Part shown: in pieces, positions 1 to 60,472 of the stretch
How positions within the stretch are numbered: the first letter of the stretch is position 1
Layout: every line of letters begins with the position of its first letter
Assembly: GCF_004208415.1 (NCBI RefSeq)
Contig: NZ_CP035758.1
Location: forward strand, 1 to 64,000
DNA length: 64,000 nt
Source: Ktedonosporobacter rubrisoli
Lineage (GTDB): Bacteria > Chloroflexota > Ktedonobacteria > Ktedonobacterales > Ktedonobacteraceae
Reading direction: 5' to 3'
Translations under genes and position numbers: made by a program
The notes under the pieces: generated by a model
The model's input: the letters and a program-made list of their open reading frames with translations, nothing else
The model's database searches: none
What the model was told of the DNA's origin: nothing

Positions 1-433
1 TCTCTCTTGTCAGCCCCTCTGGCTCCTGCCTGTTGGTGTGGGCATGATCCTGATGCTCTTCATCGTCATCGCGGGATCAGTGGTGCTGGGATGGGTGCAG
101 ACGGCTTCAGACGATCTGCACTATGGCCGTCCTCGCACCTTCCAGATGGATGCCTTTGTGGGGCATGAAACCGGTAGCACCTCCAGCCACTTCATCGCGC
201 TTAATTTGCAAGGAAAGATTGAGATCATTGAATTGCCTGGAGGTGATCCAACGCGAGCGAGAATGTATGTTGGGCCTAAAATCTATGGACCAGGAGCAGA
301 TCTGGTTCCAGTGACGTTGCGCTTCGTGGAAGGAGCCCAGCCTCATCATCCGGAGATGCTTATTCTCTTCCAGAACACGCAAGTGGTCTTTCGCAATGCC
401 AATGGCACCTTTGCGCCTGCAACTCATACGTAG
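1..433 (+). pseudogene. Left-arm partial image of the 13164-13733 membrane-protein gene
   Basis: Open from the window edge to the stop at 431-433, identical in protein sequence to the 3' part of the minus-strand gene at 13164-13733. It is cut by the window start and by the extent of the inverted repeat. Probably not a separate gene, because it lies in the suspected read-through arm. Confidence 0.8.
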
Positions 434-1440
434 TGGGCGTGTCCTGCCAAAACCTCGTCATCCGGTGGCGTGCAGGGCTGCTGGCAGGGTAGCCTCTATG
501 TGGAGAACGTCGCCGTCAAAACCCATCAGGAAGAAGGCTTGATTTTGGGGGAAAATCGGGTATAGTTGATTCTGTTAGCTACAAGAGAACCATTGAATGG
601 TTCTCTTGTTTTTTGTGTTCAAAAGTTTCGTTTTCTCCATTTCTCTCGCCCTCATATGATACCTTCACCCCGTGTCATTGGGGGAACGACAAATTATGTT
701 CCCTCAATTAAGGAACCTCTATCAATTATTGGTACATCAGTCATTGTTCCCCACACATCTACAATTCAGAGTAACAATGGCAATTGTTACTCTATCTGAT
801 CGAGAAACGAGGGAGAATATAGTCTTATAGGAGGGCACATCAGGCTGTAAATCGACAAAATAGATGAGGGTAAAATTGGCGGGATAAGTGAGTGGTAAAA
901 AAGAAGGGAAGAAGCAGAGAGTGAGAAATGAGGAGAAGATGGAAGGAGCCAGGGAAAGCCCTCAAGAAGCTGTTCAAAGAAGCATCAGGGAAGGTGTGAA
1001 ATAGGGGCAAAAAGCAGCGGAGAGGAATGGTGAAAAGGAGTCGTCACAGGTGGTGAAAACGGAGGAGGAGAGGGAGAGAGAGACATAGAGGGTATGGGGA
1101 AAGCGCGTGTGGAGCGTGCCGATAGGGATCTATCAAAGACTGTGCAAAAAAGAGCCTCAAAGAAAAGAAAGAAAAGGATAGCCCCATTTTTTTGCGAAAT
1201 AGATGAGGGGAAATCTGGAGGAGAACATGAAGTGGCTGGGTAAAAAGAGGTGATATATGGGGAAAGATGTAAATAAGATAGGTCTATCTGGTGAGAGAGG
1301 GAGACAAGAGCAGGAAAAGGAGAGGTCTCGGCATCTCTAAGAGAAGCTGGAGACCTCACTTTTATGGAAAATTGATGGAAAAGGGAGAGAATATACTGGC
1401 TCATGGGGTGAGAGGGAGGAGGAAACAACAGGGAGGGAGT
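434..1440. other. Left-arm image of the non-coding region upstream of tniA
   Basis: Reverse-complement copy of 12152-13163, including the TGTAAATC transposon end (846-853 on the plus strand). It holds most of the homopolymer differences between the arms (for example at about 609, 750, 822, 929, 953, 983, 1241, 1362 and 1415), as expected of non-coding read-through sequence nearest the contig end. Confidence 0.8.
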
Positions 1441-3003
1441 ATGAAGCAAGAGAGAAGAGTGCCGAGCCTCACGGAGTTGACGGAAGAGCAACGGACAGAG
1501 GCATATAGGCGCTATGAAGTGGTGAAAGAGTGTGTGGAAGAAGGAGTGCCGCAAACGGAGGTGGCGCGGGAATATGGAGTGCCGCTCTCGACATTGCAGC
1601 GCTGGGTGCATCAGTATCGGGAAGATGGGCTGTGTGGATTGGCCCGGCAACCGCGTGCGGATCGAGGGACGCGGCGCAATCTCTCGGAAGAGGTGGTGAA
1701 AGTGATCGAGGGATTGGCCTTACGCAAACCGCGCAGATCGATGGCAACGATCCATCGGCAGGTGAGTGCGATTGCGCTCACGCAGGATGGGAAGAACCCA
1801 GCTATGCGCAGGTGTATCGAATCGTGAAAGCGTTGTCACCAGCGTTGGTGACGTTGGCGCAGGAGGGGGCCGGGAGCTATCGAGAGGAATATGAGCTGTT
1901 GTATCGGCGAGAAGCGGGAAGGGCCAACGAGATCTGGCAAGCGGATCATTGTCTGTTACCAATTTGGGTCAAAGATGGGCAGGGCAAGAGCGCTCGACCG
2001 TGGTTGACGGTGATCGAGGATGATAAGAGCCGAGCCATAGCTGGCTATCGGTTCTCGTGGTCAGCCCCCAGTGCGATCCAAACGGCACTAACACTCCGGC
2101 AGGCGATCTGGCGCAAAGAAGATCCACAGTGGCAGGTGTGTGGTATCCCCGAGGTGTTCTATACCGATCATGGGAGTGATTTTACGAGCGTGCATTTGGA
2201 GCAGGTGGGAGCGGATCTCAAGATGCAGTTGGTGTTTTCGCAGGTGGGAAGGCCGCGAGGGCGAGGCAAGATTGAGCGATTTTTTCAGAGTGTGGAACAA
2301 CTCTTTTTAGAAAGACAGCCCGGCTATGCGCCATCGGAAGCGTGGCCGAAGTCTGTGGGGCAGGGAGCCGGGAAGGAGAGAGCAGGGGTGCTGACGCTCT
2401 GGGAGTTGGAGCAGTGCTTTCGGGAGTGGTTGCTCTCGGACTATCACCGTCGGGTGCAAAAAGGGCACAGCAGGGGACCGCAGGAGCGCTGGGAAGAAGG
2501 GGATTGTTGCCGAGGATGCCGGAGTCGTTGGAACAGTTAGATCTGTTGTTGGTGCAGGTGGCAAGGAAGCGGCGGGTGCAACAGAGCGGGATTGCTTTTG
2601 AAGGATATACGTATCTGGATCCCACCCTCTCGGCCTATGTGGGGGAGGAGGTCATGATCCGGTATGATCCGATAGATCTCGCAGAGATCAGAGTGTTTTT
2701 TCAAAATCGGTTTGTCTGCCGGGCGATCTGTCCAGAATTGTCGGGACAAACAGTGAGTTTGAAGGAAATTGTGGCAGCCCGGCAGGCAAGGAGAAGGGAT
2801 CTGAGAGGAGAACTAGCAGAGCGAAAAGCGTTAGTGAAGCACTATGTGAAACGCGAAGCCGAAACCAGCCGCAGGGCTACGGCAGAGCAAGCAGTGGGGG
2901 AGAAAGCGGCAGCAGTGAAGCTGGAAGTTCGCCAGCCAAGATGCAGGAGCAAGAGGCCCCTGTGTCAACGAAAACGCGTCTGAAGAGGTATAGGAATGAG
3001 TAA
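1441..3003 (+). pseudogene. tniA: Left-arm image of tniA, broken by three single-base losses
   Basis: Same sequence as the intact gene at 10586-12151 except for one base missing from G-runs at about 1786, 2500 and 2898. These split the reading frame into pieces ending near 1827, 2540 and 2983. All three fall in homopolymers and the right arm is intact, so the frameshifts are probably sequencing error in a read-through copy rather than gene decay. Confidence 0.8.
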
Positions 3004-3911
3004 GGCGAAGACGAAGGAGCTCATGGGGCCGGTTGCGAGAGAAGGAGTGGTGGTCTGGGAAGGGCTGGGTGAGGAGCAAGAGGAAGAAGAGGTGCATCGT
3101 CGGCTGTGGAAGCGGTTTGTGCAGACGAAAGAGTATGGGAGATTTGTAGAGTTCTGTGAGGAGTGCCGAGCCTCGCGCTATATCGGGGTGTGCTATGGAG
3201 CAGCAGGAGTAGGAAAAACCGAGTCGGCGAAGGAATATGCACGCTGGGATGAAATTGAGCCATTGTTGTCCTGGCATGGGTGGTGCAGCCCCGGTTGTCG
3301 CCAGAGAATCCCAGGCCGACAGTCGCGCTCTATACGCCCACGGCGACGGTGACGGCCAGGCAAATAGAGAAAGACATTGCGCTGCTGCGCTGGAGTCTGC
3401 GGGTGATTGGAGAGGCGGCCCGCGCCGTGCCCCAAGAGGTGGAGACGGTGGAAGGGATGGTGCGTCCGGGGCAGGTAGACCTGTTAGTGGTGGATGAGGC
3501 AGATCGACTCAAACCACAAGCCGTGGAGGTGCTGCGAGATGTGTATGATCGAAGTCCCACGGGGCTAGTGTTGATCGGGATGCCTGGGCTGGAGAAACGT
3601 TTGGCCCGCTATCCGCAACTGTATTCGCGGGTGGGTTTTGTCCATCAATATCGGACGTTGGGAAAAGAAGAACAGCAGGAGCTTGTTGAACAACAGGTGC
3701 GCTCTTTGGCGGAGGAAGAGGTGAGGGGAGGAAGATCGAGAAGGAGGCAGTGGCGCAGATTATTCGTATGACGGGCGGGAATTTTCGGCAGATGGAACGG
3801 TTGCTCTTGCAAATGAAACGGATCATCGAGATTAATCCAGAGGTCGAACAGGTGAACCGAGAAGTGGTAGAAGCAGCGCGAGAGCAGTTAGTGTTTGGAA
3901 GAGGTGTCTAA
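2996..3911 (+). pseudogene. tniB: Left-arm image of tniB, broken by two single-base losses
   Basis: Copy of the intact 9676-10593 gene with one base missing from a G-run near 3277 and one from a T-run near 3707. The Walker A motif (GAAGVGKT) lies before the first break and Walker B after it. Probably a technical artefact, as for the adjacent tniA image. Confidence 0.8.
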
Positions 3912-4007
3912 ACCGAGAGCAGGAGGAGGCTCTCTTCTGGTTTGCCTTTTCAAGACAGAGAAAGAAAGCATGTGTTTTTCTCTGTCTGAGCATTGTTCAG
4001 AGATGCG

Positions 4008-4241
4008 TTAATGATGGCCCAGGATGCGCTTGCGAGTAGTGCGTTGCTGGACTTCTGTCGCTTCTCTTTCATCGATTTCATCTTGTACATGGCGTGGTTG
4101 GAGGGATTGTTTCTCGATGTGTAAATATTCAACCTGATCTTTCTCGTGATTGAACACGGCGATCCATGTGTATGTGCGCCCTTGACGTTTCACCACCGCC
4201 GGGGTGATTTCCGAGGGTGATTTTATCCAATAAACTTGCAT
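4008..4241 (-). CDS. Left-arm image of the 77-aa protein gene
   Basis: Identical copy of the gene at 9346-9579, with no base difference, because the segment between about 3707 and 5040 is exact in both arms. Counted as a feature only because it is present in the sequence given; it is probably the same physical gene read on the other strand. Confidence 0.6.
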   Translation of the reverse strand: MQVYWIKSPSEITPAVVKRQGRTYTWIAVFNHEKDQVEYLHIEKQSLQPRHVQDEIDEREATEVQQRTTRKRILGHH

Positions 4242-4550
4242 GAGCATTTCTCCTTTCACTCTGTTCTACAGAAGGTTCCAGTCATTTTCCTGGTATCGCT
4301 TTTGCGTTGCGCACTTCTTATAGTCTTTTGGGAGAGAGAAAATTGGGGATCTGGAACTCACCCACCGATCCATGCGTGGTTTTCGTGCCCGCTCTCCCTG
4401 TGAACGGCTCGGATGACGCGCACATGAGCAATGTCCAAAGGAGTCTAGTATATTTACGAGAGGATGTGAGGTAAAGCCTTGACATGTACCAAAGAATTAT
4501 AGTACAATGATAAGTAATGACGACGGAACAAGAAAGAGGAGGTGTGCTCT

Positions 4551-6389
4551 ATGGGAGAAATGACACGCTGGCAACACGAGTGCTTGTTTGCAGCGGGCGG
4601 ATTGCTGGATCGGTTGCGCCCCTTAGGGGTGACTGAGGAACGGGAGATTGAGCGTCTCTGTCAAGAGGAAATCGCGGCCTGGCGTGCGCGTCCGACGATG
4701 GTCGTCGAAAGTTCCCTCCAGGAGCCGCTGCGGCATGCCCGCAATGCCATTCGGGAGCATCTTCCTCTCACTGGTGCTAATCGGTGGAAGAATCCGAAGA
4801 CGAAGAAGTACGAGCACATTGCGCTCAAGTATCTCAACTTTTCATTGGAGGAGTGGCAGCGCATCAATACCGATAGCGAGGAGCGCTTTGCCCAAAGAAT
4901 ACGCTCGCAGCAACGCATTGACGATCCCGATGCGGTTGTGTGTCTCTCCGAAGACCTCTTGCGCAGGCCTGAGTGGTATAACTTGGCACTCGGGGTGACC
5001 ATCAACACCGGGCGTCGGAGCACCGAAGTGCTCAAAACGGGGTCTTCTCTCCCAAGACCGCCTATACACTCTGGTTTAAGGGGCAATTAAAGACGAAGGA
5101 ATATGATTTAGAGGCGTATGAGATCCCCACGCTGGTGCCCGCGGATCTGGTGCTTGCGGCTATTGCTCGCTTGCGGCAGCTCCTGGATTGCTCTCAGATG
5201 AGCAATGATGCGGTCAGTCAGCGCTTTGGCCCGGTGATGCGTCAAATGGCGGATCAGCACTTACGTGACCTGATCCCCAAGAAAGATGAGGGCAAAACCT
5301 GTATACGCATCTGTCCCGTTCCATTTATGGGCGCTTGTGTGTGCTCTATCACTGCCCCCCTGCCGTGTTCGATTTACAGTATATGGCGCATATTCTCGGC
5401 CACTATTGGTATTTTCGTGAGCAGGACGAGAAGAAACGGGCGAATCTGGATAGCACCTTGCATTATATGGACTATGTGATTGGTGATGGCCATGGCAACT
5501 TGGACGGTCGTCGTGGCATTTGGCTGGGTACGAAACCGGGCGTTGAGGTGCTTGATGCCTTTCGAAAGGAGTGGGAGGAGATGACACAGCCACCCGTGAT
5601 ACGAACAGGTCATTCTGGAAAGAAGAAAGAGCCAATGGAGAGCAGCATCCGGTGAGACCCAAGAAGCGTTCCATCCTCAATTGTTTGCCCCAACAGAAGA
5701 CCCTGTTTGATGCCGAGATGGAGCGGCGAAGCCTGGCCCATCAGCATGAATTGGTTGGCGCGCTCTTGAATGAAGCGGCCTGGTATCGGCAGATGGATGC
5801 GGAACTTTCCCCTCTTTCCGAAGCGCTGCAAGCGTCTACCCCATTGGGGACTCTGAGATCCCTCATTGCAGTGTATCAGGGGGAGAAGCAAGACGTGGCA
5901 GTCAGCACCCATCTCCAGCAACGCTGGGGGTGTCGCTTGACCAGATCGATGCGCTCTTTGAGAAGGCCGTCGAGGATGGCTATAAGGAGCCTCTCAAATA
6001 CTTTGAGGGCACCCTAGAAAAACGGGAGAGCTATAAAGCAGGGCGCAGAAGCGGGCCCAAAAATACCAGCAAACGGATTTTACCCTGCTTCCCTATTCCC
6101 AACTGGAACATATTCGGATGCCTGAAGCGGCGCAGGAGCGGGTTCGTCGCATTGTCCTGACCATCATGCGGCACAATGAACGGGCCAACCCCGTGATCGT
6201 TGGTATATCAATGCTGGACTCATCTACCAACTCAAAACGATCCGCCATGAGCTGATCAATGCCTATCTCAAGGAACATGAAGAAGAGATCAAAAACCATC
6301 ATCGCCAGTTGGGTATTGAACCCCGGTATAATCGCAAAATGGAATCGATTCGGGAAATGATCACCATTCCTGAGGAACCTCTCCCTTAA
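4551..6389 (+). pseudogene. Left-arm image of the protelomerase gene, six frameshifts
   Basis: Copy of 7192-9036. Single bases are lost from homopolymers near 5040, 5290, 5636, 5930, 6043 and 6185, breaking the frame just after the GRR motif block and repeatedly after that. The promoter (TTGACA/TACAAT near 4479-4508) and ribosome site are intact. Every difference is a run-length change, so I read this as the same gene sequenced at lower accuracy, not as a second decayed copy. Confidence 0.8.
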
Positions 6390-6507
6390 ATGGGTCTCTC
6401 CATGCTCTTCCTAAAGAAGTAACATCTCTTGCCTTTTGGTTGTGCTGTCGTCATACAAAAATTGTACAATAGAATTGTTGGTATGTAAAATTATTTGGTA
6501 TAGATTA

Positions 6508-6580
6508 TGATTATACAAAAGAATATCAGGTACAATATGTTACGGAGTATACCTGTACCTGATATTCTTTTGTATAATCA
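6508..6580. repeat. Left-arm image of the 27-bp telomere-proximal dyad
   Basis: Mirror copy of the dyad at 7001-7073, at the same distance from the axis. It carries no independent information if the left arm is a read-through copy. Confidence 0.85.
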
Positions 6581-6752
6581 TTTAAGGGATGGGAAACCTC
6601 AACTTGTTGTACTTTAGAAATTGATGTACAGATTTATGGAGAGAGAACAACCTATTTGCCCCGATTTCTCGTACCATAGATAACATAGTACGCAAAATAT
6701 CTATACAACACAACCTAATGTAAAGAAAACGAACTCCAATACTTGTAATGAT

Positions 6753-6828
6753 GACCGGTCTATTTTCTTCGTCACGTGTATCTATTGTGTACACAATAGA
6801 TACACGTGACGAAGAAAATAGACCGGTC
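6753..6828. other. Candidate hairpin telomere / protelomerase target site
   Basis: This is the centre of the palindrome, core ATTGTGTACACAAT across 6790/6791. Any fold-back is palindromic, so the symmetry alone proves nothing. Each half-site also has its own structure: AATAGA at 6795-6800 and again at 6817-6822 (22 bp apart, about two helical turns), CACGTG at 6803-6808 and GACCGGTC at 6821-6828, all mirrored on the left. Known protelomerase sites (N15 tos, phiKO2, Borrelia) are palindromes with sub-motifs bound by resolvase monomers. The limits given run from the outermost GACCGGTC to its mirror and are my choice. Confidence 0.7.
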
Positions 6829-7000
6829 ATCATTACAAGTATTGGAGTTCGTTTTCTTTACATTAGGTTGTGTTGTATAGATATTTTGCGTACTATGTTA
6901 TCTATGGTACGAGAAATCGGGGCAAATAGGTTGTTCTCTCTCCATAAATCTGTACATCAATTTCTAAAGTACAACAAGTTGAGGTTTCCCATCCCTTAAA

Positions 7001-7073
7001 TGATTATACAAAAGAATATCAGGTACAGGTATACTCCGTAACATATTGTACCTGATATTCTTTTGTATAATCA
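7001..7073. repeat. Perfect 27-bp inverted repeat with 19-nt loop, 210 bp from the telomere
   Basis: Arms 7001-7027 and 7047-7073 are exact reverse complements and the inner edges read GGTACA and TGTACC. The repeat sits in the AT-rich 400 bp between the hairpin axis and the protelomerase stop codon. It is not a typical intrinsic terminator: it is AT-rich, its loop is 19 nt, and no clean T-run follows on either strand. A protein-binding site (protelomerase, replication initiator or partition protein) or a replication-linked dyad fits better, but its function is unknown. Confidence 0.85.
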
Positions 7074-7107
7074 TAATCTATACCAAATAATTTTACATAC
7101 CAACAAT

Positions 7108-7120
7108 TCTATTGTACAAT
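7108..7120. promoter_or_regulatory. Shortened telomere-core-like motif
   Basis: The motif TCTATTGTACAAT resembles the telomere core TCTATTGTGTACACAATAGA with four central bases missing, and contains the 10-bp palindrome ATTGTACAAT (7111-7120). It lies 70 bp downstream of the protelomerase stop. It could be an accessory resolvase-binding site; chance is not excluded because the region is AT-rich. Confidence 0.35.
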
Positions 7121-7191
7121 TTTTGTATGACGACAGCACAACCAAAAGGCAAGAGATGTTACTTCTTTAGGAAGAGCATGGAGAGACCCAT

Positions 7192-9036
7192 TTAAGGGAG
7201 AGGTTCCTCAGGAATGGTGATCATTTCCCGAATCGATTCCATTTTGCGATTATACCGGGGTTCAATACCCAACTGGCGATGATGGTTTTTGATCTCTTCT
7301 TCATGTTCCTTGAGATAGGCATTGATCAGCTCATGGCGGATCGTTTTGAGTTGGTAGATGAGTCCAGCATTGATATACCAACGATCACGGGGTTGGGCCC
7401 GTTCATTGTGCCGCATGATGGTCAGGACAATGCGACGAACCCGCTCCTGCGCCGCTTCAGGCATCCGAATATGTTCCAGTTGGGAATAGGGAAGCAGGGT
7501 AAAATCCGTTTGCTGGTATTTTTGGGCCCGCTTCTGCGCCCCTGCTTTATAGCTCTCCCGTTTTTCTAGGGTGCCCTCAAAGTATTTGAGAGGCTCCTTA
7601 TAGCCATCCTCGACGGCCTTCTCAAAGAGCGCATCGATCTGGTCAAGCGACACCCCCCAGCGTTGCTGGAGATGGGTGCTGACTGCCACGTCTTGCTTCT
7701 CCCCCTGATACACTGCAATGAGGGATCTCAGAGTCCCCAATGGGGTAGACGCTTGCAGCGCTTCGGAAAGAGGGGAAAGTTCCGCATCCATCTGCCGATA
7801 CCAGGCCGCTTCATTCAAGAGCGCGCCAACCAATTCATGCTGATGGGCCAGGCTTCGCCGCTCCATCTCGGCATCAAACAGGGTCTTCTGTTGGGGCAAA
7901 CAATTGAGGATGGAACGCTTCTTGGGTCTCACCGGATGCTGCTCTCCCATTGGCTCTTTCTTCTTTCCAGAATGACCTGTTCGTATCACGGGTGGCTGTG
8001 TCATCTCCTCCCACTCCTTTCGAAAGGCATCAAGCACCTCAACGCCCGGTTTCGTACCCAGCCAAATGCCACGACGACCGTCCAAGTTGCCATGGCCATC
8101 ACCAATCACATAGTCCATATAATGCAAGGTGCTATCCAGATTCGCCCGTTTCTTCTCGTCCTGCTCACGAAAATACCAATAGTGGCCGAGAATATGCGCC
8201 ATATACTGTAAATCGAACACGGCAGGGGGGCAGTGATAGAGCACACACAAGCGCCCATAAATGGAACGGGACAGATGCGTATACAGGTTTTGCCCCTCAT
8301 CTTTCTTGGGGATCAGGTCACGTAAGTGCTGATCCGCCATTTGACGCATCACCGGGCCAAAGCGCTGACTGACCGCATCATTGCTCATCTGAGAGCAATC
8401 CAGGAGCTGCCGCAAGCGAGCAATAGCCGCAAGCACCAGATCCGCGGGCACCAGCGTGGGGATCTCATACGCCTCTAAATCATATTCCTTCGTCTTTAAT
8501 TGCCCCTTAAACCAGAGTGTATAGGCGGTCTTGGGAGAGAAGACCCCCGTTTTGAGCACTTCGGTGCTCCGACGCCCGGTGTTGATGGTCACCCCGAGTG
8601 CCAAGTTATACCACTCAGGCCTGCGCAAGAGGTCTTCGGAGAGACACACAACCGCATCGGGATCGTCAATGCGTTGCTGCGAGCGTATTCTTTGGGCAAA
8701 GCGCTCCTCGCTATCGGTATTGATGCGCTGCCACTCCTCCAATGAAAAGTTGAGATACTTGAGCGCAATGTGCTCGTACTTCTTCGTCTTCGGATTCTTC
8801 CACCGATTAGCACCAGTGAGAGGAAGATGCTCCCGAATGGCATTGCGGGCATGCCGCAGCGGCTCCTGGAGGGAACTTTCGACGACCATCGTCGGACGCG
8901 CACGCCAGGCCGCGATTTCCTCTTGACAGAGACGCTCAATCTCCCGTTCCTCAGTCACCCCTAAGGGGCGCAACCGATCCAGCAATCCGCCCGCTGCAAA
9001 CAAGCACTCGTGTTGCCAGCGTGTCATTTCTCCCAT
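7192..9036 (-). CDS. Protelomerase (telomere resolvase), TelN/TelK/ResT type
   Basis: Predicted 614-aa tyrosine recombinase that would cut a replicated telomere palindrome and seal each end as a hairpin. Numbered from ATG 9036, which has GAGGAGG 8 nt upstream (a GTG 9 nt earlier lies against that site): GRR at 155-156, with R156 the first catalytic Arg; GQLK with K181, 25 residues later; HLSR (H254, R257) followed by IYGR; ILGH (H285); and LHY with Y306 as likely nucleophile. As I recall TelN, it has the same blocks: SGRR, FSGQAK, SRAIYAR, EILGH and LHY. Length matches TelN/TelK (about 630-640 aa). Odd: roughly 12 extra residues between LGH and the Tyr. Residues after about 345 match nothing I recognise and may be a DNA-clamping C-terminal part. 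The gene ends 400 bp from the hairpin axis. Confidence 0.9.
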   Translation of the reverse strand: MGEMTRWQHECLFAAGGLLDRLRPLGVTEEREIERLCQEEIAAWRARPTMVVESSLQEPLRHARNAIREHLPLTGANRWKNPKTKKYEHIALKYLNFSLEEWQRINTDSEERFAQRIRSQQRIDDPDAVVCLSEDLLRRPEWYNLALGVTINTGRRSTEVLKTGVFSPKTAYTLWFKGQLKTKEYDLEAYEIPTLVPADLVLAAIARLRQLLDCSQMSNDAVSQRFGPVMRQMADQHLRDLIPKKDEGQNLYTHLSRSIYGRLCVLYHCPPAVFDLQYMAHILGHYWYFREQDEKKRANLDSTLHYMDYVIGDGHGNLDGRRGIWLGTKPGVEVLDAFRKEWEEMTQPPVIRTGHSGKKKEPMGEQHPVRPKKRSILNCLPQQKTLFDAEMERRSLAHQHELVGALLNEAAWYRQMDAELSPLSEALQASTPLGTLRSLIAVYQGEKQDVAVSTHLQQRWGVSLDQIDALFEKAVEDGYKEPLKYFEGTLEKRESYKAGAQKRAQKYQQTDFTLLPYSQLEHIRMPEAAQERVRRIVLTIMRHNERAQPRDRWYINAGLIYQLKTIRHELINAYLKEHEEEIKNHHRQLGIEPRYNRKMESIREMITIPEEPLP

Positions 9037-9078
9037 AGAGCACACCTCCTCTTTCTTGTTCCGTCGTCATTACTTATC

Positions 9079-9108
9079 ATTGTACTATAATTCTTTGGTA
9101 CATGTCAA
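9079..9108 (-). promoter_or_regulatory. Sigma70-type promoter of the protelomerase gene
   Basis: On the minus strand TTGACA (9108-9103) and TACAAT (9084-9079) are separated by 18 bp and lie about 45 bp upstream of the ATG. The spacer starts TGTACC, a motif also found at the inner edge of the 27-bp dyad, which could allow autoregulation; that link is conjecture. Confidence 0.7.
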
Positions 9109-9345
9109 GGCTTTACCTCACATCCTCTCGTAAATATACTAGACTCCTTTGGACATTGCTCATGTGCGCGTCATCCGAGCCGTTCACAGGGAGAGCGGGC
9201 ACGAAAACCACGCATGGATCGGTGGGTGAGTTCCAGATCCCCAATTTTCTCTCTCCCAAAAGACTATAAGAAGTGCGCAACGCAAAAGCGATACCAGGAA
9301 AATGACTGGAACCTTCTGTAGAACAGAGTGAAAGGAGAAATGCTC

Positions 9346-9579
9346 ATGCAAGTTTATTGGATAAAATCACCCTCGGAAATCACCCCGGCGGTGGTGAAAC
9401 GTCAAGGGCGCACATACACATGGATCGCCGTGTTCAATCACGAGAAAGATCAGGTTGAATATTTACACATCGAGAAACAATCCCTCCAACCACGCCATGT
9501 ACAAGATGAAATCGATGAAAGAGAAGCGACAGAAGTCCAGCAACGCACTACTCGCAAGCGCATCCTGGGCCATCATTAA
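9346..9579 (+). CDS. Small 77-aa protein divergent from the protelomerase
   Basis: Not recognised. The ATG at 9346 has AGGAG 8 nt upstream; a GTG at 9328 is in frame but lies before that site. The N-terminal half (MQVYWIKSPSEITPAVVKRQ, then a TYTWIAVFNHEKDQVEYLHIE segment read in two parts) looks like a small beta-rich fold. The C-terminal third is highly charged and ends in a basic TTRKRILGHH tail. It is intact in both arms. Its position, transcribed divergently from the protelomerase across 309 bp and followed by a bidirectional terminator, makes it a candidate accessory or regulatory partner, but nothing in the sequence shows that directly. Confidence 0.6.
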   Translation: MQVYWIKSPSEITPAVVKRQGRTYTWIAVFNHEKDQVEYLHIEKQSLQPRHVQDEIDEREATEVQQRTTRKRILGHH

Positions 9580-9599
9580 CGCATCTCTGAACAATGCTC

Positions 9600-9634
9600 A
9601 GACAGAGAAAAACACATGCTTTCTTTCTCTGTCT
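9600..9634. terminator. Bidirectional terminator hairpin between convergent genes
   Basis: Stem AGACAGAGAAA (9600-9610) pairs with TTTCTCTGTCT (9624-9634), loop 13 nt. It lies between the stop of the 77-aa gene (plus) and the stop of tniB (minus). A second short hairpin (GAGAGC/GCTCTC) lies next to the tniB stop. Confidence 0.6.
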
Positions 9635-9675
9635 TGAAAAGGCAAACCAGAAGAGAGCCTCCTCCTGCTCTCGGT

Positions 9676-10593
9676 TTAGACACCTCTTCCAAACACTAAC
9701 TGCTCTCGCGCTGCTTCTACCACTTCTCGGTTCACCTGTTCGACCTCTGGATTAATCTCGATGATCCGTTTCATTTGCAAGAGCAACCGTTCCATCTGCC
9801 GAAAATTCCCGCCCGTCATACGAATAATCTGCGCCACTGCCTCCTTCTCGATCTTCCTCCCCTCACCTCTTCCTCCGCCAAAAGAGCGCACCTGTTGTTC
9901 AACAAGCTCCTGCTGTTCTTCTTTTCCCAACGTCCGATATTGATGGACAAAACCCACCCGCGAATACAGTTGCGGATAGCGGGCCAAACGTTTCTCCAGC
10001 CCAGGCATCCCGATCAACACTAGCCCCGTGGGACTTCGATCATACACATCTCGCAGCACCTCCACGGCTTGTGGTTTGAGTCGATCTGCCTCATCCACCA
10101 CTAACAGGTCTACCTGCCCCGGACGCACCATCCCTTCCACCGTCTCCACCTCTTGGGGCACGGCGCGGGCCGCCTCTCCAATCACCCGCAGACTCCAGCG
10201 CAGCAGCGCAATGTCTTTCTCTATTTGCCTGGCCGTCACCGTCGCCGTGGGCGTATAGAGCGCGACTGTCGGCCTGGGATTCTCTGGCGACAACCGGGGC
10301 TGCACCACCCCATGCCAGGACAACAATGGCTCAATTTCATCCCAGCGTGCATATTCCTTCGCCGACTCGGTTTTTCCTACTCCTGCTGCTCCATAGCACA
10401 CCCCGATATAGCGCGAGGCTCGGCACTCCTCACAGAACTCTACAAATCTCCCATACTCTTTCGTCTGCACAAACCGCTTCCACAGCCGACGATGCACCTC
10501 TTCTTCCTCTTGCTCCTCACCCAGCCCTTCCCAGACCACCACTCCTTCTCTCGCAACCGGCCCCATGAGCTCCTTCGTCTTCGCCTTACTCAT
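9676..10593 (-). CDS. tniB: TniB-like AAA+ ATPase (transposition activator)
   Basis: 305-aa ATPase of the TniB/TnsC/MuB group, which loads on target DNA and activates the DDE transposase. Visible motifs are Walker A GAAGVGKT (K74) and Walker B LLVVDEAD (D167, E168), then a sensor-like GLVLIGMPG segment. The first 40 residues are an acidic, low-complexity extension absent from the shorter paralogue at 59702-60472. Its start overlaps the tniA stop by 8 bp (10586-10593), the same overlap as in the second Tni pair in this window, so the two are translationally coupled. No TniQ or TnsD target selector is next to it. Confidence 0.88.
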   Translation of the reverse strand: MSKAKTKELMGPVAREGVVVWEGLGEEQEEEEVHRRLWKRFVQTKEYGRFVEFCEECRASRYIGVCYGAAGVGKTESAKEYARWDEIEPLLSWHGVVQPRLSPENPRPTVALYTPTATVTARQIEKDIALLRWSLRVIGEAARAVPQEVETVEGMVRPGQVDLLVVDEADRLKPQAVEVLRDVYDRSPTGLVLIGMPGLEKRLARYPQLYSRVGFVHQYRTLGKEEQQELVEQQVRSFGGGRGEGRKIEKEAVAQIIRMTGGNFRQMERLLLQMKRIIEINPEVEQVNREVVEAAREQLVFGRGV

Positions 10594-12151
10594 TCCTATA
10601 CCTCTTCAGACGCGTTTTCGTTGACACAGGGGCCTCTTGCTCCTGCATCTTGGCTGGCGAACTTCCAGCTTCACTGCTGCCGCTTTCTCCCCCCACTGCT
10701 TGCTCTGCCGTAGCCCTGCGGCTGGTTTCGGCTTCGCGTTTCACATAGTGCTTCACTAACGCTTTTCGCTCTGCTAGTTCTCCTCTCAGATCCCTTCTCC
10801 TTGCCTGCCGGGCTGCCACAATTTCCTTCAAACTCACTGTTTGTCCCGACAATTCTGGACAGATCGCCCGGCAGACAAACCGATTTTGAAAAAACACTCT
10901 GATCTCTGCGAGATCTATCGGATCATACCGGATCATGACCTCCTCCCCCACATAGGCCGAGAGGGTGGGATCCAGATACGTATATCCTTCAAAAGCAATC
11001 CCGCTCTGTTGCACCCGCCGCTTCCTTGCCACCTGCACCAACAACAGATCTAACTGTTCCAACGACTCCGGCATCCTCGGCAACAATCCCCCTTCTTCCC
11101 AGCGCTCCTGCGGTCCCCTGCTGTGCCCTTTTTGCACCCGACGGTGATAGTCCGAGAGCAACCACTCCCGAAAGCACTGCTCCAACTCCCAGAGCGTCAG
11201 CACCCCTGCTCTCTCCTTCCCGGCTCCCTGCCCCACAGACTTCGGCCACGCTTCCGATGGCGCATAGCCGGGCTGTCTTTCTAAAAAGAGTTGTTCCACA
11301 CTCTGAAAAAATCGCTCAATCTTGCCTCGCCCTCGCGGCCTTCCCACCTGCGAAAACACCAACTGCATCTTGAGATCCGCTCCCACCTGCTCCAAATGCA
11401 CGCTCGTAAAATCACTCCCATGATCGGTATAGAACACCTCGGGGATACCACACACCTGCCACTGTGGATCTTCTTTGCGCCAGATCGCCTGCCGGAGTGT
11501 TAGTGCCGTTTGGATCGCACTGGGGGCTGACCACGAGAACCGATAGCCAGCTATGGCTCGGCTCTTATCATCCTCGATCACCGTCAACCACGGTCGAGCG
11601 CTCTTGCCCTGCCCATCTTTGACCCAAATTGGTAACAGACAATGATCCGCTTGCCAGATCTCGTTGGCCCTTCCCGCTTCTCGCCGATACAACAGCTCAT
11701 ATTCCTCTCGATAGCTCCCGGCCCCCTCCTGCGCCAACGTCACCAACGCTGGTGACAACGCTTTCACGATTCGATACACCTGCGCATAGCTGGGTTCTTC
11801 CCATCCCTGCGTGAGCGCAATCGCACTCACCTGCCGATGGATCGTTGCCATCGATCTGCGCGGTTTGCGTAAGGCCAATCCCTCGATCACTTTCACCACC
11901 TCTTCCGAGAGATTGCGCCGCGTCCCTCGATCCGCACGCGGTTGCCGGGCCAATCCACACAGCCCATCTTCCCGATACTGATGCACCCAGCGCTGCAATG
12001 TCGAGAGCGGCACTCCATATTCCCGCGCCACCTCCGTTTGCGGCACTCCTTCTTCCACACACTCTTTCACCACTTCATAGCGCCTATATGCCTCTGTCCG
12101 TTGCTCTTCCGTCAACTCCGTGAGGCTCGGCACTCTTCTCTCTTGCTTCAT
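10586..12151 (-). CDS. tniA: TniA-like DDE transposase (Mu/rve type)
   Basis: 521-aa transposase. The start ATG 12151 has GGGAGGGAG just upstream; an in-frame start 33 nt earlier lacks a site. An N-terminal helix-turn-helix region (about 25-60, EGVPQTEVAREYGVPLSTLQ) is followed by a second DNA-binding part. The rve core carries D169 (QADH), D243 (YTDHGSDF) and E279 (GKIERFF), a DD35E spacing. A Mu-type C-terminal beta-barrel follows (about 385-440), then a basic, low-complexity tail. It is intact here but broken by homopolymer losses in the left-arm image. With TniB it forms the core of a Tn402/Tn5053-like or Tn7-like element. Its paralogue at 60465-61932 is frameshifted. Confidence 0.9.
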   Translation of the reverse strand: MKQERRVPSLTELTEEQRTEAYRRYEVVKECVEEGVPQTEVAREYGVPLSTLQRWVHQYREDGLCGLARQPRADRGTRRNLSEEVVKVIEGLALRKPRRSMATIHRQVSAIALTQGWEEPSYAQVYRIVKALSPALVTLAQEGAGSYREEYELLYRREAGRANEIWQADHCLLPIWVKDGQGKSARPWLTVIEDDKSRAIAGYRFSWSAPSAIQTALTLRQAIWRKEDPQWQVCGIPEVFYTDHGSDFTSVHLEQVGADLKMQLVFSQVGRPRGRGKIERFFQSVEQLFLERQPGYAPSEAWPKSVGQGAGKERAGVLTLWELEQCFREWLLSDYHRRVQKGHSRGPQERWEEGGLLPRMPESLEQLDLLLVQVARKRRVQQSGIAFEGYTYLDPTLSAYVGEEVMIRYDPIDLAEIRVFFQNRFVCRAICPELSGQTVSLKEIVAARQARRRDLRGELAERKALVKHYVKREAETSRRATAEQAVGGESGSSEAGSSPAKMQEQEAPVSTKTRLKRYRNE

Positions 12152-12374
12152 ACTCCCTCCCTGTTGTTTCCTCCTCCCTCTCACCCCATGAGCCAGTATA
12201 TTCCTCTCCCTTTTCCATCAATTTTCCATAAAAAGTGAGGTCTCCAGCTTCTCTTAGAGATGCCGAGACCTCTCCTTTTCCTGCTCTTGTCTCCCTCTCT
12301 CACCAGATAGACCTATCTTATTTACATCTTTCCCCATATATCACCTCTTTTACCCAGCCACTTCATGTTCTCCT

Positions 12375-12750
12375 CCAGATTTCCCCTCATCTATTTCGCA
12401 AAAAAATGGGGCTATCCTTTTCTTTCTTTTCTTTGAGGCTCTTTTTTGCACAGTCTTTGATAGATCCCTATCGGCACGCTCCACACGCGCTTTCCCCATA
12501 CCCTCTATGTCTCTCTCTCCCTCTCCTCCTCCGTTTTCACCACCTGTGACGACTCCTTTTCACCATTCCTCTCCGCTGCTTTTTGCCCCTATTTCACACC
12601 TTCCCTGATGCTTCTTTGAACAGCTTCTTTGAGGGCTTTCCCCTGGCTCCTTCCATCTTCTCCTCCATTTCTCACTCTCTGCTTCTTCCCTTCTTTTTTA
12701 CCACTCACTTATCCCGCCAATTTTACCCTCATCTATTTTGTCGATTTACA
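12375..12750 (-). repeat. Likely transposon end with two transposase-binding repeats
   Basis: Read on the minus strand from 12750, this begins TGTAAATCGACAAAATAGAT. The first eight bases (TGTAAATC) equal the ends of the second Tni element (56489 and 62044), and TGT...ACA ends are typical of Tn7/Tn402-type elements. A direct repeat sharing the core AAATAGATGAGGG lies at about 12717-12740 and again at 12375-12399, as expected of TnsB/TniA end-binding sites. I found no matching inward-facing TGTAAATC between 6791 and 9676. Confidence 0.55.
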
Positions 12751-12990
12751 GCCTGATGTGCCCTCCTATAAAGACTATATTCTCCCTCGTTTCTCGATCA
12801 GATAGAGTAACAATTGCCATTGTTACTCTGAATTGTAGATGTGTGGGGGAACAATGACTGATGTACCAATAATTGATAGAGGTTCCTTAATTGAGGGAAC
12901 ATAATTTGTCGTTCCCCCAATGACACGGGGTGAAGGTATCATATGAGGGCGAGAGAAATGGAGAAAACGAAACTTTTGAACACAAAAACA

Positions 12991-13013
12991 AGAGAACCAT
13001 TCAATGGTTCTCT
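12991..13013 (-). terminator. Intrinsic terminator of the 13164-13733 gene
   Basis: An 11-bp stem AGAGAACCATT/AATGGTTCTCT with a one-base centre. On the minus strand it is followed by TGTTTTTG, 150 bp beyond the stop codon of the membrane-protein gene. A related hairpin with a longer T-run lies at 14201-14223. Confidence 0.65.
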
Positions 13014-13163
13014 TGTAGCTAACAGAATCAACTATACCCGATTTTCCCCCAAAATCAAGCCTTCTTCCTGATGGGTTTTGACGGCGACGTTCTCCACATA
13101 GAGGCTACCCTGCCAGCAGCCCTGCACGCCACCGGATGACGAGGTTTTGGCAGGACACGCCCA

Positions 13164-13733
13164 CTACGTATGAGTTGCAGGCGCAAAGGTGCCATTGGCA
13201 TTGCGAAAGACCACTTGCGTGTTCTGGAAGAGAATAAGCATCTCCGGATGATGAGGCTGGGCTCCTTCCACGAAGCGCAACGTCACTGGAACCAGATCTG
13301 CTCCTGGTCCATAGATTTTAGGCCCAACATACATTCTCGCTCGCGTTGGATCACCTCCAGGCAATTCAATGATCTCAATCTTTCCTTGCAAATTAAGCGC
13401 GATGAAGTGGCTGGAGGTGCTACCGGTTTCATGCCCCACAAAGGCATCCATCTGGAAGGTGCGAGGACGGCCATAGTGCAGATCGTCTGAAGCCGTCTGC
13501 ACCCATCCCAGCACCACTGATCCCGCGATGACGATGAAGAGCATCAGGATCATGCCCACACCAACAGGCAGGAGCCAGAGGGGCTGACAAGAGAGAGGAC
13601 ACTGCCTTCGCTCTGGCAGCTTGGAGGTTGGCTGGGTGCGTGAGGCACGAGGAATGCGCGGTGGCTCTTCGGTGGCAACATCCGGGTCAACTGGACGATA
13701 CCGAACAGCACTTTTTGGGGCCAGGGCTGGCAT
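13164..13733 (-). CDS. Membrane-anchored protein with VCBS/FG-GAP-like segment
   Basis: 189 aa. The ATG at 13733 has GAGGAGG closely upstream; the longer open frame to 14210 has no such site. A polar, proline-rich cytoplasmic N-terminus (1-50) is followed by one hydrophobic helix (about 52-75, LLPVGVGMILMLFIVIAGSV). An extracytoplasmic domain then carries FVGHETG, IEIIELPGGDP, YVGPKIYG and LVPVTLRF, reminiscent of VCBS-like proteins common in Ktedonobacteria. Function unknown. The hairpin image covers only its 3' two-thirds (1-433). It is flanked by a degenerate direct repeat at 12974-13053 and 14184-14265. Confidence 0.6.
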   Translation of the reverse strand: MPALAPKSAVRYRPVDPDVATEEPPRIPRASRTQPTSKLPERRQCPLSCQPLWLLPVGVGMILMLFIVIAGSVVLGWVQTASDDLHYGRPRTFQMDAFVGHETGSTSSHFIALNLQGKIEIIELPGGDPTRARMYVGPKIYGPGADLVPVTLRFVEGAQPHHPEMLILFQNTQVVFRNANGTFAPATHT

Positions 13734-14286
13734 GATCTTCCTCCTCTTGAAGCCTATGAGATGCAGACAACACACGAAGCGTGACCAGAGAGAACCGTGC
13801 TGAACCTCAAGGCGGATGAAAGCCCGCCTGCCGTATGCGGACACGGCTTCATTCGCGTCCATTGAAGCGCCATGAGGATAAAGGCTTTTCCACCTGGAAA
13901 GGGAGGAAGGGTCCCGTAAAGGCAAACCATACGACTTCTCCTCTCGTTTGTGTGCGAATGAACGATAATCCAGTGATGAAATAGGCACGAGATGAGAGCG
14001 AGAAGTCTCTTGATAAGAACAAGTGTACCTGAAGAAGGGAGAGGGTGGCAATCCCTTTATCCACCAATTTCGCTCTAAAAATGGGGATAAAGGTGTGGAG
14101 AACTCACCTCGACGGTGGATCGACTGTGGACAACCCTCTGACCGCGCTCCTAAAGCGGGGCAAGAGAGAGGAGGAGCATGAAGCCTTTGAGCACAAAAAA
14201 AGAGAACCAATCAATGGCTCTCTTGTAACTAACACAATCAAGTATACACTATTTCCTGCCAAAAATCAAGCCCTCGCATTCCCTCA
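13734..14286. other. Non-coding stretch between the membrane-protein gene and the first IS
   Basis: No supported gene. It lies outside the inverted repeat. The only structure I see is the direct repeat and hairpin at 14184-14265. Confidence 0.5.
14184..14265. repeat. Direct repeat of 12974-13053, with hairpin
   Basis: About 80 bp, roughly 80% identical by eye to 12974-13053 and in the same orientation. Both copies contain an AGAGAACCA.../...TCTCT hairpin followed by T's on the minus strand (seven T's here). The two copies bracket the 13164-13733 gene, so the unit may have moved or been duplicated as a gene plus terminator. Confidence 0.6.
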
Positions 14287-14351
14287 GGTAAAATGTTACT
14301 GAACAAGGTACACTTCCCTCAAATAAGAATGTTACCGAGGGGAGCAAGAGC

Positions 14352-14850: not shown

Positions 14851-14898
14851 ATGAGAGAATGAGAGAGCAGGTGATGACAGAGATTTCAGGAGGAACGC

Positions 14899-15350: not shown

Positions 15351-15365
15351 AAGCAGTCGAATGGA

Positions 15366-15638
15366 CTGTATGACAAAATATGGGTATCTTCCAATTTCTT
15401 TCAGTCTGTGATGCATTTGCAGGAGGAGATCTGCCAGCAGGAGAAAGTGCTTCGCCATTGGGATCAGGCACAAACGCCCTATCAGCGCTTGAGGGCCACA
15501 GCTACGCTCGATCACGAACAACTGCCTTGTTTGCAAGCACTCTCTGAGCGAACGAATCCTCTGACCCTGCGCAAGGAGATGTATCGGCTGCTGACCTACC
15601 TATGGGAGCTTCCTCAGGCTGCGACCAGGATCGCTTAA
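15366..15638 (+). pseudogene. C-terminal fragment of the rve transposase begun at 14352
   Basis: Reads SSNFFQSVMHLQEEICQQEK, then DQAQTPYQRLRA and TNPLTLRKEMYRLLTYLWEL, the C-terminal signature of the same transposase family as the 14352 fragment. The upstream junction lies in the inserted IS630-like sequence. Confidence 0.6.
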
Positions 15639-29853: not shown

Positions 29854-29870
29854 ATCTATATAGTAACACA

Positions 29871-32557: not shown

Positions 32558-32561
32558 AAAT

Positions 32562-59603: not shown

Positions 59604-59701
59604 GGTAATGCTCCTTACAGAACGCGCCAGTGGTCACAAAGAAGAGAGCCTGCTGACTCTCTCATCAAACCAACGCTTTTGAGACACCTCATCCACACAG
59701 C

Positions 59702-60472
59702 TTATCCCAAAACGTGTCGTTCGCGCGCTTTTTCTACCACCTCTTTGGTGACGGTATGGAGGTGATTGATTTCCAAAATGCGCTCAATCTGCATCAACAG
59801 ACGATGAATAACGCGAAAGTTGCTACCAGTAATGCGCACGATGGCGGCCAGAGCCTCGGCATCAGTAAAATCATCCACGCGGATATGCATGCCCAGGTGG
59901 CTCCAACGCTCTTGGAGTAACCACACGAGCCCGAAGTGACCTCGATCATAGAGATCACGCAGCTGCTCCAGCGCGGCTGGCTTTAATCGTTGAGCCTCAT
60001 CGACGATCACCAACTCTGTCCGTTTGGGAAGCCGATAGGCCAGCAAAAAATCATCTTTGCCTCGGCTGGCCTGCTCTGCTGCTTCAACCACGTAGGAGAG
60101 GGTGGCAGAGAGAGCCATCACCTCCCGCTCGATGCGCAAGGGCGTCGCGGCCACTGGAGCGGTATAGTACACGGTCCGACACGCGAGCACGTCGGCAAAA
60201 GCAGGAGAACCGGGGGTGGCGAATGGTCTGTGCGGAAACTGGTCGTCAAGATAGCGTCGTCCAACTAGAGTAAACAGTTCTTCAGGAAATAACGGTGAGA
60301 GCAGATCCCAACGAGCATATTCTCGTGCCGAACGTGTTTTTCCTGCCCCAGCAACCCCATGACAAATTCCAATATAGCGATACTTTCGACACGCGTCGCA
60401 GAATTCTCCAAATCGGAGATACTCCTTGGTGGCGGCAAAGATGAGTTCTTTTGTCTCAGGCTCTTCACTCAT
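59702..60472 (-). CDS. tniB: TniB-like AAA+ ATPase, second copy
   Basis: 256 aa. Walker A GVAGAGKT (K45), Walker B LVIVDEAQ (D158, E159). Shorter than the telomere-proximal TniB: it lacks the acidic N-terminal extension, and the sensor segment reads GLVWLLQERWSHLGMHIRVD where the paralogue has GLVLIGMPGLEKRLARYPQL, so about 15 residues are missing or replaced. Overlaps tniA by 8 bp (60465-60472), like the other pair. Confidence 0.85.
   Translation of the reverse strand: MSEEPETKELIFAATKEYLRFGEFCDACRKYRYIGICHGVAGAGKTRSAREYARWDLLSPLFPEELFTLVGRRYLDDQFPHRPFATPGSPAFADVLACRTVYYTAPVAATPLRIEREVMALSATLSYVVEAAEQASRGKDDFLLAYRLPKRTELVIVDEAQRLKPAALEQLRDLYDRGHFGLVWLLQERWSHLGMHIRVDDFTDAEALAAIVRITGSNFRVIHRLLMQIERILEINHLHTVTKEVVEKARERHVLG

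What the first reader, a model, noticed from the sequence alone, without database searches (positions are those of the whole stretch)
6753..6828. Probable hairpin telomere of a linear bacterial replicon
A zero-spacer inverted repeat of at least 6.79 kb per arm, with no substitutions between arms, has its axis 400 bp from an intact protelomerase gene. Long reads through a covalently closed hairpin give exactly this structure. Characterised protelomerase systems that I know of are phage-plasmids (N15, phiKO2, PY54, VP882 types), Borrelia and Agrobacterium; I do not recall one from Chloroflexota. If right, this replicon is linear and base 6791 is its end.
Basis: partly seen in the sequence, partly recalled or inferred. 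Interest (0 to 1): 0.95.

Follow-up and report, generated by a model that had tools for sequence, protein, structure and literature searches.

The report
Transposon-borne hairpin telomere in Ktedonobacteria
The DNA folds back on itself exactly at base 6790/6791, the likely sealed hairpin tip of a linear 3.5-Mb replicon in a bacterium of the class Ktedonobacteria, and the outermost 6 kb look like a transposon that carries its own predicted end-sealing enzyme and probably takes over existing chromosome ends by jumping onto them.

Summary
Observation confirmed. A zero-spacer palindrome has its axis at 6790/6791 (606 perfect bp per arm; 0 substitutions, 20 one-base indels over 6.79 kb), 401 bp from an intact telomere-resolvase gene (PF16684, 2.7e-33; best fold match TelA). 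The 11.34-Mb contig repeats the tip at 3475995/6, where the assembly probably joined two linear replicons through identical ends: a 3.47-Mb one without 16S or tRNA genes and a ~7.87-Mb chromosome holding 4 of 4 16S and 54 of 54 tRNA genes. GC skew switches once inside each and reverses across the junction. A relative, brp13, shows the same palindrome, gene placement and tip boxes. The telomere is the outer end of a 5.96-kb module, resolvase-TnsC-TnsB, whose inner end reads TGTAAATCGA.... A Dictyobacter locus carries a related element 2 bp past the axis of an older telomere. Best reading: a telomeric transposon that supplies hairpin telomeres to Mb-scale replicons. Covalent closure, enzyme activity and present-day mobility are inferred; no reads were available, and no second transposon end was found beside the tip.

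The parts
1..6790 (.). Fold-back copy of 6791-13596: most likely read-through of the hairpin, not separate DNA
   Evidence: 0 substitutions, 20 one-base indels against 6791-13596
6790..6791 (.). Palindrome axis, predicted hairpin tip
   Evidence: 606 perfect bp per arm; same tip at 3475995/6
6796..6840 (+). Conserved tip boxes: ATAG 6796-6799, ACGTGA 6804-6809, CGGT 6824-6827, ACAAGT 6835-6840; predicted resolvase-binding region (mirror copy 6741-6785)
   Evidence: Same distances from the axis in brp13; exact pattern 6 times in 47 genomes, all at these tips, reversed control once
7000..7074 (.). Imperfect ~75-bp palindrome between resolvase gene and tip; role unknown
   Evidence: a similar one in brp13 L017 2450-2522
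7192..9045 (-). TelR, telomere resolvase (TelA-type protelomerase), 617 aa
   Evidence: PF16684 2.7e-33; TelA 7.1e-8; Foldseek TelA 8.1e-12; six catalytic positions invariant in 26 homologues (TelA residues)
9676..10593 (-). TnsC-like AAA ATPase
   Evidence: AAA_22 2.2e-17; PHROG 'DNA transposition protein' 8e-39; PADLOC TnsC 7.3e-7; in PDB RecA scores best, ShTnsC 6.6e-5
10586..12184 (-). TnsB-like DDE transposase
   Evidence: Solved TnsB 3.1e-46; PADLOC TnsB_0_V-K 2e-54; Mu-transpos_C and rve
12699..12750 (-). Inner transposon end, reads TGTAAATCGACAAAATAGATGAGGGT... into the element
   Evidence: Replicon B's left end leaves the shared sequence here; with up to 3 mismatches the motif has 5 places in the contig, all at telomeres; reversed control 0
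6791..12750 (.). Proposed telomeric transposon, 5.96 kb
   Evidence: Same element, 0 substitutions, in two different inner flanks
6791..14351 (.). Terminal inverted repeat shared with the other end of replicon A; 14002-16417 is also at the contig's far end
59696..61917 (-). Older, broken tnsC-tnsB pair in the same orientation, about 53 kb inside the tip
   Evidence: tblastn 37% and 55-58% identity, 8e-44 and 4e-141

Best explanation
Base 6790/6791 is the likely covalently closed hairpin tip of a linear 3.47-Mb secondary replicon, and the outermost 5.96 kb (6791-12750) is probably a telomeric transposon whose outer end is this telomere and whose inner end is a TnsB-type TGTA end. How it would work: replication from an internal origin runs round the hairpins and leaves sister molecules joined through a palindrome; the element's own resolvase (TelR) is predicted to bind the boxes next to the axis, cut both strands and reseal each as a hairpin. 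TnsB and TnsC are predicted to insert new copies at or near the apex of existing telomeres; the newcomer's telomere and TelR then replace the old ones, which stay behind further in as fossils. Shown by sequence: the palindrome and its second copy, the same element in two flanks, the inner end, the shared gene order and tip boxes, a fossil insertion at an old tip in a relative, and the two-replicon pattern of skew and RNA genes. Inferred: covalent closure, TelR activity, targeting, and mobility today.
For: Hairpin: zero-spacer palindrome whose left arm differs by indels only; identical tip at 3475995/6 with different unique sequence beyond; intact TelA-type enzyme. Two linear replicons: 16S 4 of 4 and tRNA 54 of 54 in B; one skew switch inside each, reversal across the junction, 0 of 2000 permutations as good for A and for B. 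Independent case: brp13 begins with a perfect palindrome of 2,799-bp arms and has TelR at both ends reading outwards, and shares the tip boxes at equal distances. Transposon: TnsB/TnsC relatives; TelR-TnsC-TnsB in the same order in D. aurantiacus, K. formicarum, K. robiniae, G035, D. arantiisoli and inside brp13; inner end at telomeres only and exactly at the A/B divergence. Apex insertion: in D. arantiisoli old TelR, old tip boxes to the axis, AA, then a TGT end and tnsB; two further cases abut an older TelR or its remnant.
Against: No reads: closure and the join at 3475995 are not seen directly. Only this genome and brp13 show the fold-back; 0 of 20 other contig starts examined do. The tip of B's right end is missing from the assembly. 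No second transposon end was found beside the tip (best telomere-side match reached by 6 of 300 and 98 of 300 shuffles). This strain's own inner flanks, and those in D. aurantiacus and K. formicarum contig 11, show no old telomere. The exact box pattern is absent from 6 of the 9 genomes with PF16684. TnsB without PF16684 in 4 of 11 genomes, PF16684 without close TnsB in 2 of 9. brp13's outermost TelR has no TnsB or TnsC next to it. No TGTAAA end was found 5' of tnsB in K. robiniae.
Confidence: 0.83

Rival explanations
1. A hairpin telomere that belongs to the host: TelR and telomere are inherited vertically, and the TnsB/TnsC genes are ordinary transposons that pile up in subtelomeric DNA.
For: brp13's outermost TelR has no TnsB or TnsC beside it; 4 of 11 genomes with close TnsB lack PF16684 and 2 of 9 the reverse; no second transposon end was found beside the tip.
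Against: The same 5.96 kb, tip included, sits in two different inner flanks and ends exactly at the TGTA end; gene order TelR-TnsC-TnsB is kept in several genera; a related element lies at the apex of an older telomere.
Confidence: 0.12
2. Assembly or library artefact: a chimeric fold-back read or an inverted duplication at an internal site, with no telomere.
For: The left arm is of raw-read quality and the contig demonstrably contains a questionable join.
Against: The same base is the turning point twice in the contig; brp13, deposited separately, shows the same structure beside the same gene; the tip boxes are found at these tips only.
Confidence: 0.03
3. The join at 3475995 is real: in the cell the two replicons are fused through an unresolved telomere junction into one 11.3-Mb linear molecule.
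For: The contig is continuous there, and unresolved junctions are the normal replication intermediate of hairpin telomeres (established knowledge).
Against: Indels concentrate within about 4 kb of the joined tips, as if few reads supported the join; D. aurantiacus is assembled as two contigs whose four ends share one repeat (PMC13289182).
Confidence: 0.05
4. End of a phage-plasmid of the N15 or VP882 type.
For: Those phages carry related resolvases, 27-37% identical over part of the protein.
Against: Replicon sizes of 3.47 and about 7.87 Mb; among 10 ORFs of the outer 25 kb scanned against PHROGs, none matched a structural or packaging family.
Confidence: 0.02

Closest known systems
Telomeric transposons (Hsieh et al., Science 2025, doi 10.1126/science.adp1973)
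   Same: As I recall, Tn7-like elements at the ends of linear bacterial chromosomes that carry telomere-maintenance genes. A passage in PMC12669027 confirms only that telomeric transposons are a described class, one with a CAST lacking TniQ-TnsD.
   Different: Recalled hosts are cyanobacteria and Streptomyces; here Chloroflexota. The paper is not held, so I could not check whether Ktedonobacteria are in it.
Agrobacterium linear chromid with TelA hairpin telomeres (PMC3558466 and PMC13293297, passages seen)
   Same: Resolvase of the same fold with matching catalytic residues; reads running round the end onto the other strand (passage).
   Different: NCBIfam TelA equivalog scores 36.6 bits against a cut-off of 800; the model has a long C-terminal part outside the TelA match; here TnsB/TnsC and a transposon end belong to the telomere unit; the replicons include the primary chromosome.
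N15/VP882-type phage-plasmids
   Same: Resolvase-made hairpin ends (recalled); partial sequence relatives in Vibrio, Aeromonas and Halomonas phages.
   Different: Phage-sized replicons with structural genes (recalled), against Mb-scale replicons and no structural-gene match here.
Ktedonobacteria secondary replicons with terminal inverted repeats (PMC13289182: abstract, passages, sections 17 and 21 part 1; PMC6497799: passages)
   Same: D. aurantiacus is listed with 10.9-kb terminal repeats on both contigs, as I find in G024; the secondary replicons there lack parB, as here by TIGR00180.
   Different: Those papers contain no word beginning with 'telomer' and PMC13289182 none with 'hairpin' or 'resolvase'; many topologies are given as unclear. 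Here the end structure, enzyme and transposon are identified.

Membership tests
Resolvase-made hairpin telomere of a linear replicon | Protelomerase with intact catalytic residues | tested here: met
   PF16684 2.7e-33; R159, K184, H257, R260, H288, Y309 invariant in 26 sequences against TelA Arg255, Lys286, Tyr363, Arg366, His394, Tyr405; H257/Tyr363 placed by the HxxR register, not by the printed alignment
Resolvase-made hairpin telomere of a linear replicon | Palindrome centred on the replicon end, shared by the ends | tested here: met
   Axis 6790/1 and 3475995/6; the tip of B's right end is missing from the assembly
Resolvase-made hairpin telomere of a linear replicon | Linear replicon | tested here: met
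   Terminal inverted repeats, one skew switch per replicon and reversal across the junction; indirect
Resolvase-made hairpin telomere of a linear replicon | Covalently closed ends | not testable with these tools
   Needs reads, snap-back or nuclease tests
Telomeric transposon (definition recalled, paper not held) | Tn7-like transposition genes together with a telomere-maintenance gene | tested here: met
   TnsB 3.1e-46, TnsC, TelR
Telomeric transposon (definition recalled, paper not held) | Unit at replicon ends | tested here: met
   PF16684: 22 of 25 matches over the cut-off within 45 kb of a contig end outside G000 and G023; TnsB: 14 of 14 long-contig copies outside G000 read towards the nearest contig end
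Telomeric transposon (definition recalled, paper not held) | Two transposon ends | tested here: inconclusive
   Inner end found; no convincing second end beside the tip
Telomeric transposon (definition recalled, paper not held) | Insertion at telomeres | tested here: inconclusive
   One clear apex fossil and three looser cases; K. formicarum contig 11, D. aurantiacus and this strain's flanks show none
Agrobacterium TelA (NCBIfam NF052462 equivalog) | Score over the curated cut-off | tested here: not met
   36.6 bits against 800
N15/VP882-type phage-plasmid | Phage structural genes on a phage-sized replicon | tested here: not met
   10 ORFs of the outer 25 kb, no structural PHROG; replicon sizes
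Streptomyces-type protein-capped telomere | Tpg/Tap genes and open, protein-capped ends | not tested
   No search for these genes was made; a fold-back at one base twice argues against open ends

The most novel reading that the evidence does not exclude
Chromosome ends in this bacterial lineage are run by a selfish element: a Tn7-like transposon whose outer terminus is itself the hairpin telomere jumps onto the apex of existing telomeres, brings its own resolvase, and serially replaces the telomeres of an ~8-Mb chromosome and its partner replicon, leaving a stratified record of earlier telomeres.
Probability: 0.6. Interest if true: 0.88.

Novelty: new variant of a known kind. Interest (0 to 1): 0.8.

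Why it matters
It would place resolvase-made hairpin telomeres, and transposons that own them, on primary chromosomes of about 8-9 Mb in Chloroflexota, in a lineage studied for its biosynthetic gene clusters and whose replicon topologies are often listed as 'Unclear' (PMC13289182, Table 1). It explains why chromosome and secondary replicon share ends, warns that assemblies may fuse replicons at their tips, and offers a layered natural record of telomere replacement that can be tested with existing reads and strains. That such a chromosome exceeds the known hairpin-ended ones in size (Borrelia about 0.9 Mb, Agrobacterium about 2 Mb) is recalled, not looked up.

Tried and rejected
Artefact, phage-plasmid end, host-owned telomere and a real replicon fusion were considered and are ranked as rivals.

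ORF 13164-14210 was suspected to be a targeting subunit because relatives lie beside TelR in Ktedonobacter contigs. It has 438 homologues, looks like a membrane protein, and one homologue has a weak FG-GAP match; I dropped it.

A transposon end beside the tip was sought and not found. The looser end pattern also gave hits that I take for chance because they do not lie 5' of tnsB (two in G032C11L, two in G034C3L, one each in L019 and L018). Of 8 regions 5' of tnsB searched for TGTAAA, 6 had it and L019 and G034C3L did not; the L019 end (TGTGAGC...) was then found by eye.

The register test of the tip, 29 of 60 identities between window and brp13, is reached by 1 of 100,000 shuffles but also by 79 of 115,260 off-register pairs, so I rely on the box pattern instead. 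The viral-contig scan gave 5 weak relatives, at most 35% identical. In plasmids 31 records and in phages 25 records matched, all under 60% identity. In cyanobacteria a TnsB or TnsC relative was found in the held stretch around the resolvase in only 3 of 30 loci; many of those contigs are short.

Papers: 9 of 10 searches used. No paper in the held library pairs protelomerase with Chloroflexota, Ktedonobacteria or Chloroflexi, and none of the 20 listed of 35 held 'telomere resolvase' or 'hairpin end'.

Full report
Check of the observation. The window is bases 1-64000 of the only contig (11,340,617 bp) of its genome. Its first 6,790 bases are the reverse complement of what follows: axis 6790/6791, 606 perfect bp per arm, then 0 substitutions and 20 one-base indels out to the contig start. 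In 18 of the 20 the left arm lacks a base, so the left arm looks like uncorrected read and the right arm like polished sequence.

A second copy, and what the contig is. The 801 bp around the axis occur once more, at 3475588-3476400, axis 3475995/6. I call A_L the window end read inwards from 6791, A_R the sequence left of 3475995, B_L the sequence right of it and B_R the contig's far end. A_L shares 7,561 bp with A_R and 5,961 bp with B_L, both without substitutions, and B_R repeats window 14002-16417 at 100%. I infer two linear replicons: A, 6791-3475995 (3.47 Mb), and B, 3475996 to the end plus about 7.2 kb that are missing (about 7.87 Mb). All 4 16S genes, all 54 tRNA genes, both dnaA matches over the cut-off (one of the two weaker DnaA matches is in A) and parB lie in B. 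GC skew from 64 samples (61 of 20 kb, three of 12-17 kb) switches from negative to positive once inside A (between the samples at 1.29 and 1.46 Mb) and once inside B (7.2 and 7.4 Mb), and turns from positive to negative across the junction; 0 of 2000 permutations fit a change point as well, for A and for B. Single samples depart from the trend (for example at 5.6 and 6.2 Mb). The indels of A_R and B_L against A_L lie within 3.2 and 3.9 kb of the tip, as expected if few reads carried the assembler round the hairpin from A into B.

The enzyme. ORF 7192-9045(-), 617 aa, matches ResT-TelK_cat (PF16684) at 2.7e-33 and solved TelA at 7.1e-8. TelA residues Arg255, Lys286, Tyr363, Arg366, His394 and Tyr405 (figure legend in PMC3558466) correspond to R159, K184, H257, R260, H288 and Y309. 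I placed H257 against Tyr363 by the ungapped HxxR register, where the printed alignment has gaps. All six are invariant in 26 homologues, 26 chosen from the query and the 64 found, all 64 of which carry PF16684. A model (mean pLDDT 82.6, pTM 0.49) finds TelA (six entries), TelK and ResT as its 8 matches with E <= 0.001; the aligned part covers about half of the model, and the helical C-terminal half has no match.

Relatives. The genome scan gave 35 loci: 3 in Ktedonobacteria bacterium brp13 (one contig of 8.88 Mb), 1 in Dictyobacter arantiisoli, 1 in Ktedonospora formicarum, 30 in cyanobacteria. The brp13 record begins with a perfect palindrome with arms of 2,799 bp. TelR lies at both of its ends reading outwards; the match stops 357 bp from the axis on the left and 345 bp from the record end on the right. 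Of 47 genomes of the class 9 have PF16684; of 400 drawn from the phylum 9, all in the window's own family. Leaving out the window's genome and short-contig G023, 22 of 25 matches over the cut-off lie within 45 kb of a contig end (my count; one of them is brp13's fold-back copy; the three others are 98, 127 and 267 kb in). G024 has exactly the contig lengths that PMC13289182 gives for D. aurantiacus, which is how I place the window in Ktedonobacteria (same family). Its four contig ends share 10,897 identical bp, each with TelR about 7.7 kb in. Long terminal repeats (over 2 kb at 99% or more) were also found in G034 and G035, which have PF16684, and not in G018, G027, G036 and G038, which lack it; G036 has the lengths of circular Tengunoibacter. 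Against a simple rule: 0 of 20 contig starts of relatives fold back, and G032, G033 and G043 have PF16684 without long repeats at the ends I fetched.

Conserved tip. Counted from the axis, window and brp13 share ATAG 6-9, ACGTGA 14-19, CGGT 34-37 and ACAAGT 45-50. The D. arantiisoli locus has the same boxes. The exact pattern ACTTGT-N7-ACCG-N14-TCACGT occurs 6 times in the 47 genomes, in 3 of them, each time at one of these tips; the reversed control occurs once. It is absent from the other 6 genomes with PF16684. brp13's right record end starts at the CGGT box, so it lacks about 33 bases of tip if the spacing holds.

The module. Behind TelR lie a TnsC-like ATPase and a TnsB-like transposase. 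TnsB matches solved type V-K CAST TnsB at 3.1e-46 (the V-K label from PADLOC); for TnsC the best PDB hits are RecA, with ShTnsC at 6.6e-5. A_L and B_L part right after TACA, the complement of TGTAAATCGACAAAATAGATGAGGGT, give or take one shared base. With up to 3 mismatches this motif has 5 places in the contig, all at telomeres, one being the fold-back copy; the reversed control has none. A second, older copy of the end lies 2.6 kb further in on A_R. Related ends lie 5' of tnsB in K. formicarum (two contigs), brp13, G035 and D. aurantiacus, none was seen in K. robiniae. tblastn shows TelR, TnsC and TnsB in this order, all read towards the tip, in D. aurantiacus (TnsB at two of four ends), K. 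formicarum, K. robiniae, G035, D. arantiisoli and inside brp13; several copies are broken. Close TnsB relatives (E <= 1e-50) occur in 11 of 47 genomes. On long contigs outside this genome 14 of 14 copies read towards the nearest contig end (my count, taking the two brp13 pieces near 44-45 kb as one; left out: G032:C5 of unknown length and the short or unmeasured contigs of G019, G023, G028 and G046). Two of the 14 are identical copies in D. aurantiacus, and one lies 558 kb from the end.

Fossil insertions. In D. arantiisoli (L019) a full TelR is followed by its telomere up to where the axis is in brp13 (...TATGAATT), then AA, then TGTGAGCAGC...ATGAGGG and tnsB: an element sits 2 bp past the apex of an older telomere. 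In brp13 (L044) an element's end lies 380 bp beyond an older TelR, with ACAAGT at 44-49 from it; no other box is recognisable. In G035 an end lies about 100 bp beyond the TelR match, whose frame runs on to a stop about 56 bp away, and in G032:C8 an end cuts a TelR C-terminal remnant. K. formicarum contig 11, D. aurantiacus and this strain's own flanks show no old telomere. brp13 has several TelR copies behind one another at both ends, and this window keeps a broken older tnsC-tnsB pair at 59696-61917.

Mechanism. The steps of replication, resolution and capture in the best explanation follow from what is established for TelA, ResT and TelN and for Tn7-like transposons; none was tested here. 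No TnsA or TniQ gene was found among the ORFs of the 5.96-kb unit that I examined. How an element with one ordinary end and one telomere moves is open; insertion into the replicated, still joined telomere followed by resolution at the element's own site is my guess.

What is in print. In the held library no paper joins protelomerase with Chloroflexota, Ktedonobacteria or Chloroflexi. PMC13289182 (abstract, passages, sections 17 and 21 part 1) describes ktedonobacterial secondary replicons, some with terminal repeats, without the words telomere, hairpin or resolvase. PMC6497799 (passages) speaks of linear contigs and a putative linear chromosome, not of telomeres. PMC13293297 (passages) shows that Nanopore reads run round hairpin ends onto the other strand. 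Telomeric transposons as a kind are known (Hsieh et al. 2025); I could not read that paper.

Verdict. Hairpin telomere: about 0.93. Telomeric transposon as its carrier, the combined statement: 0.83. The kind is known; the phylum, the size of the replicons and the apex fossil are new as far as these searches reach.

Noticed in passing
window 7000-7074; L017 2450-2522: Imperfect palindromes of about 75 bp lie between the resolvase gene and the tip in both this genome and brp13; terminator or protein-binding site are possible, untested.
   Followed up: no
window 13164-14210 (-): Membrane-protein family with 438 homologues, without Pfam match in this copy; relatives lie beside TelR in Ktedonobacter contigs.
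   Followed up: partly
window 7192-9045, residues about 330-617: Helical C-terminal part of TelR outside the TelA match; the D. aurantiacus TelR aligns only over query residues 21-352.
   Followed up: partly
window, between 9046 and 9675, + strand: Small open frame of about 80 codons between TelR and TnsC; no relatives sought.
   Followed up: no
G000:C1:5790390-5791946 and 6868438-6869910: Two DnaA genes over the cut-off on the chromosome.
   Followed up: no
window 29731-33788: Several diverged direct repeats of about 170-350 bp, 78-91% identical.
   Followed up: no
G025 (contig lengths of D. kobayashii), C2:97287-113916: TnsB relatives about 100 kb from a contig end in a genome without PF16684; perhaps a relic of lost linearity.
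   Followed up: no
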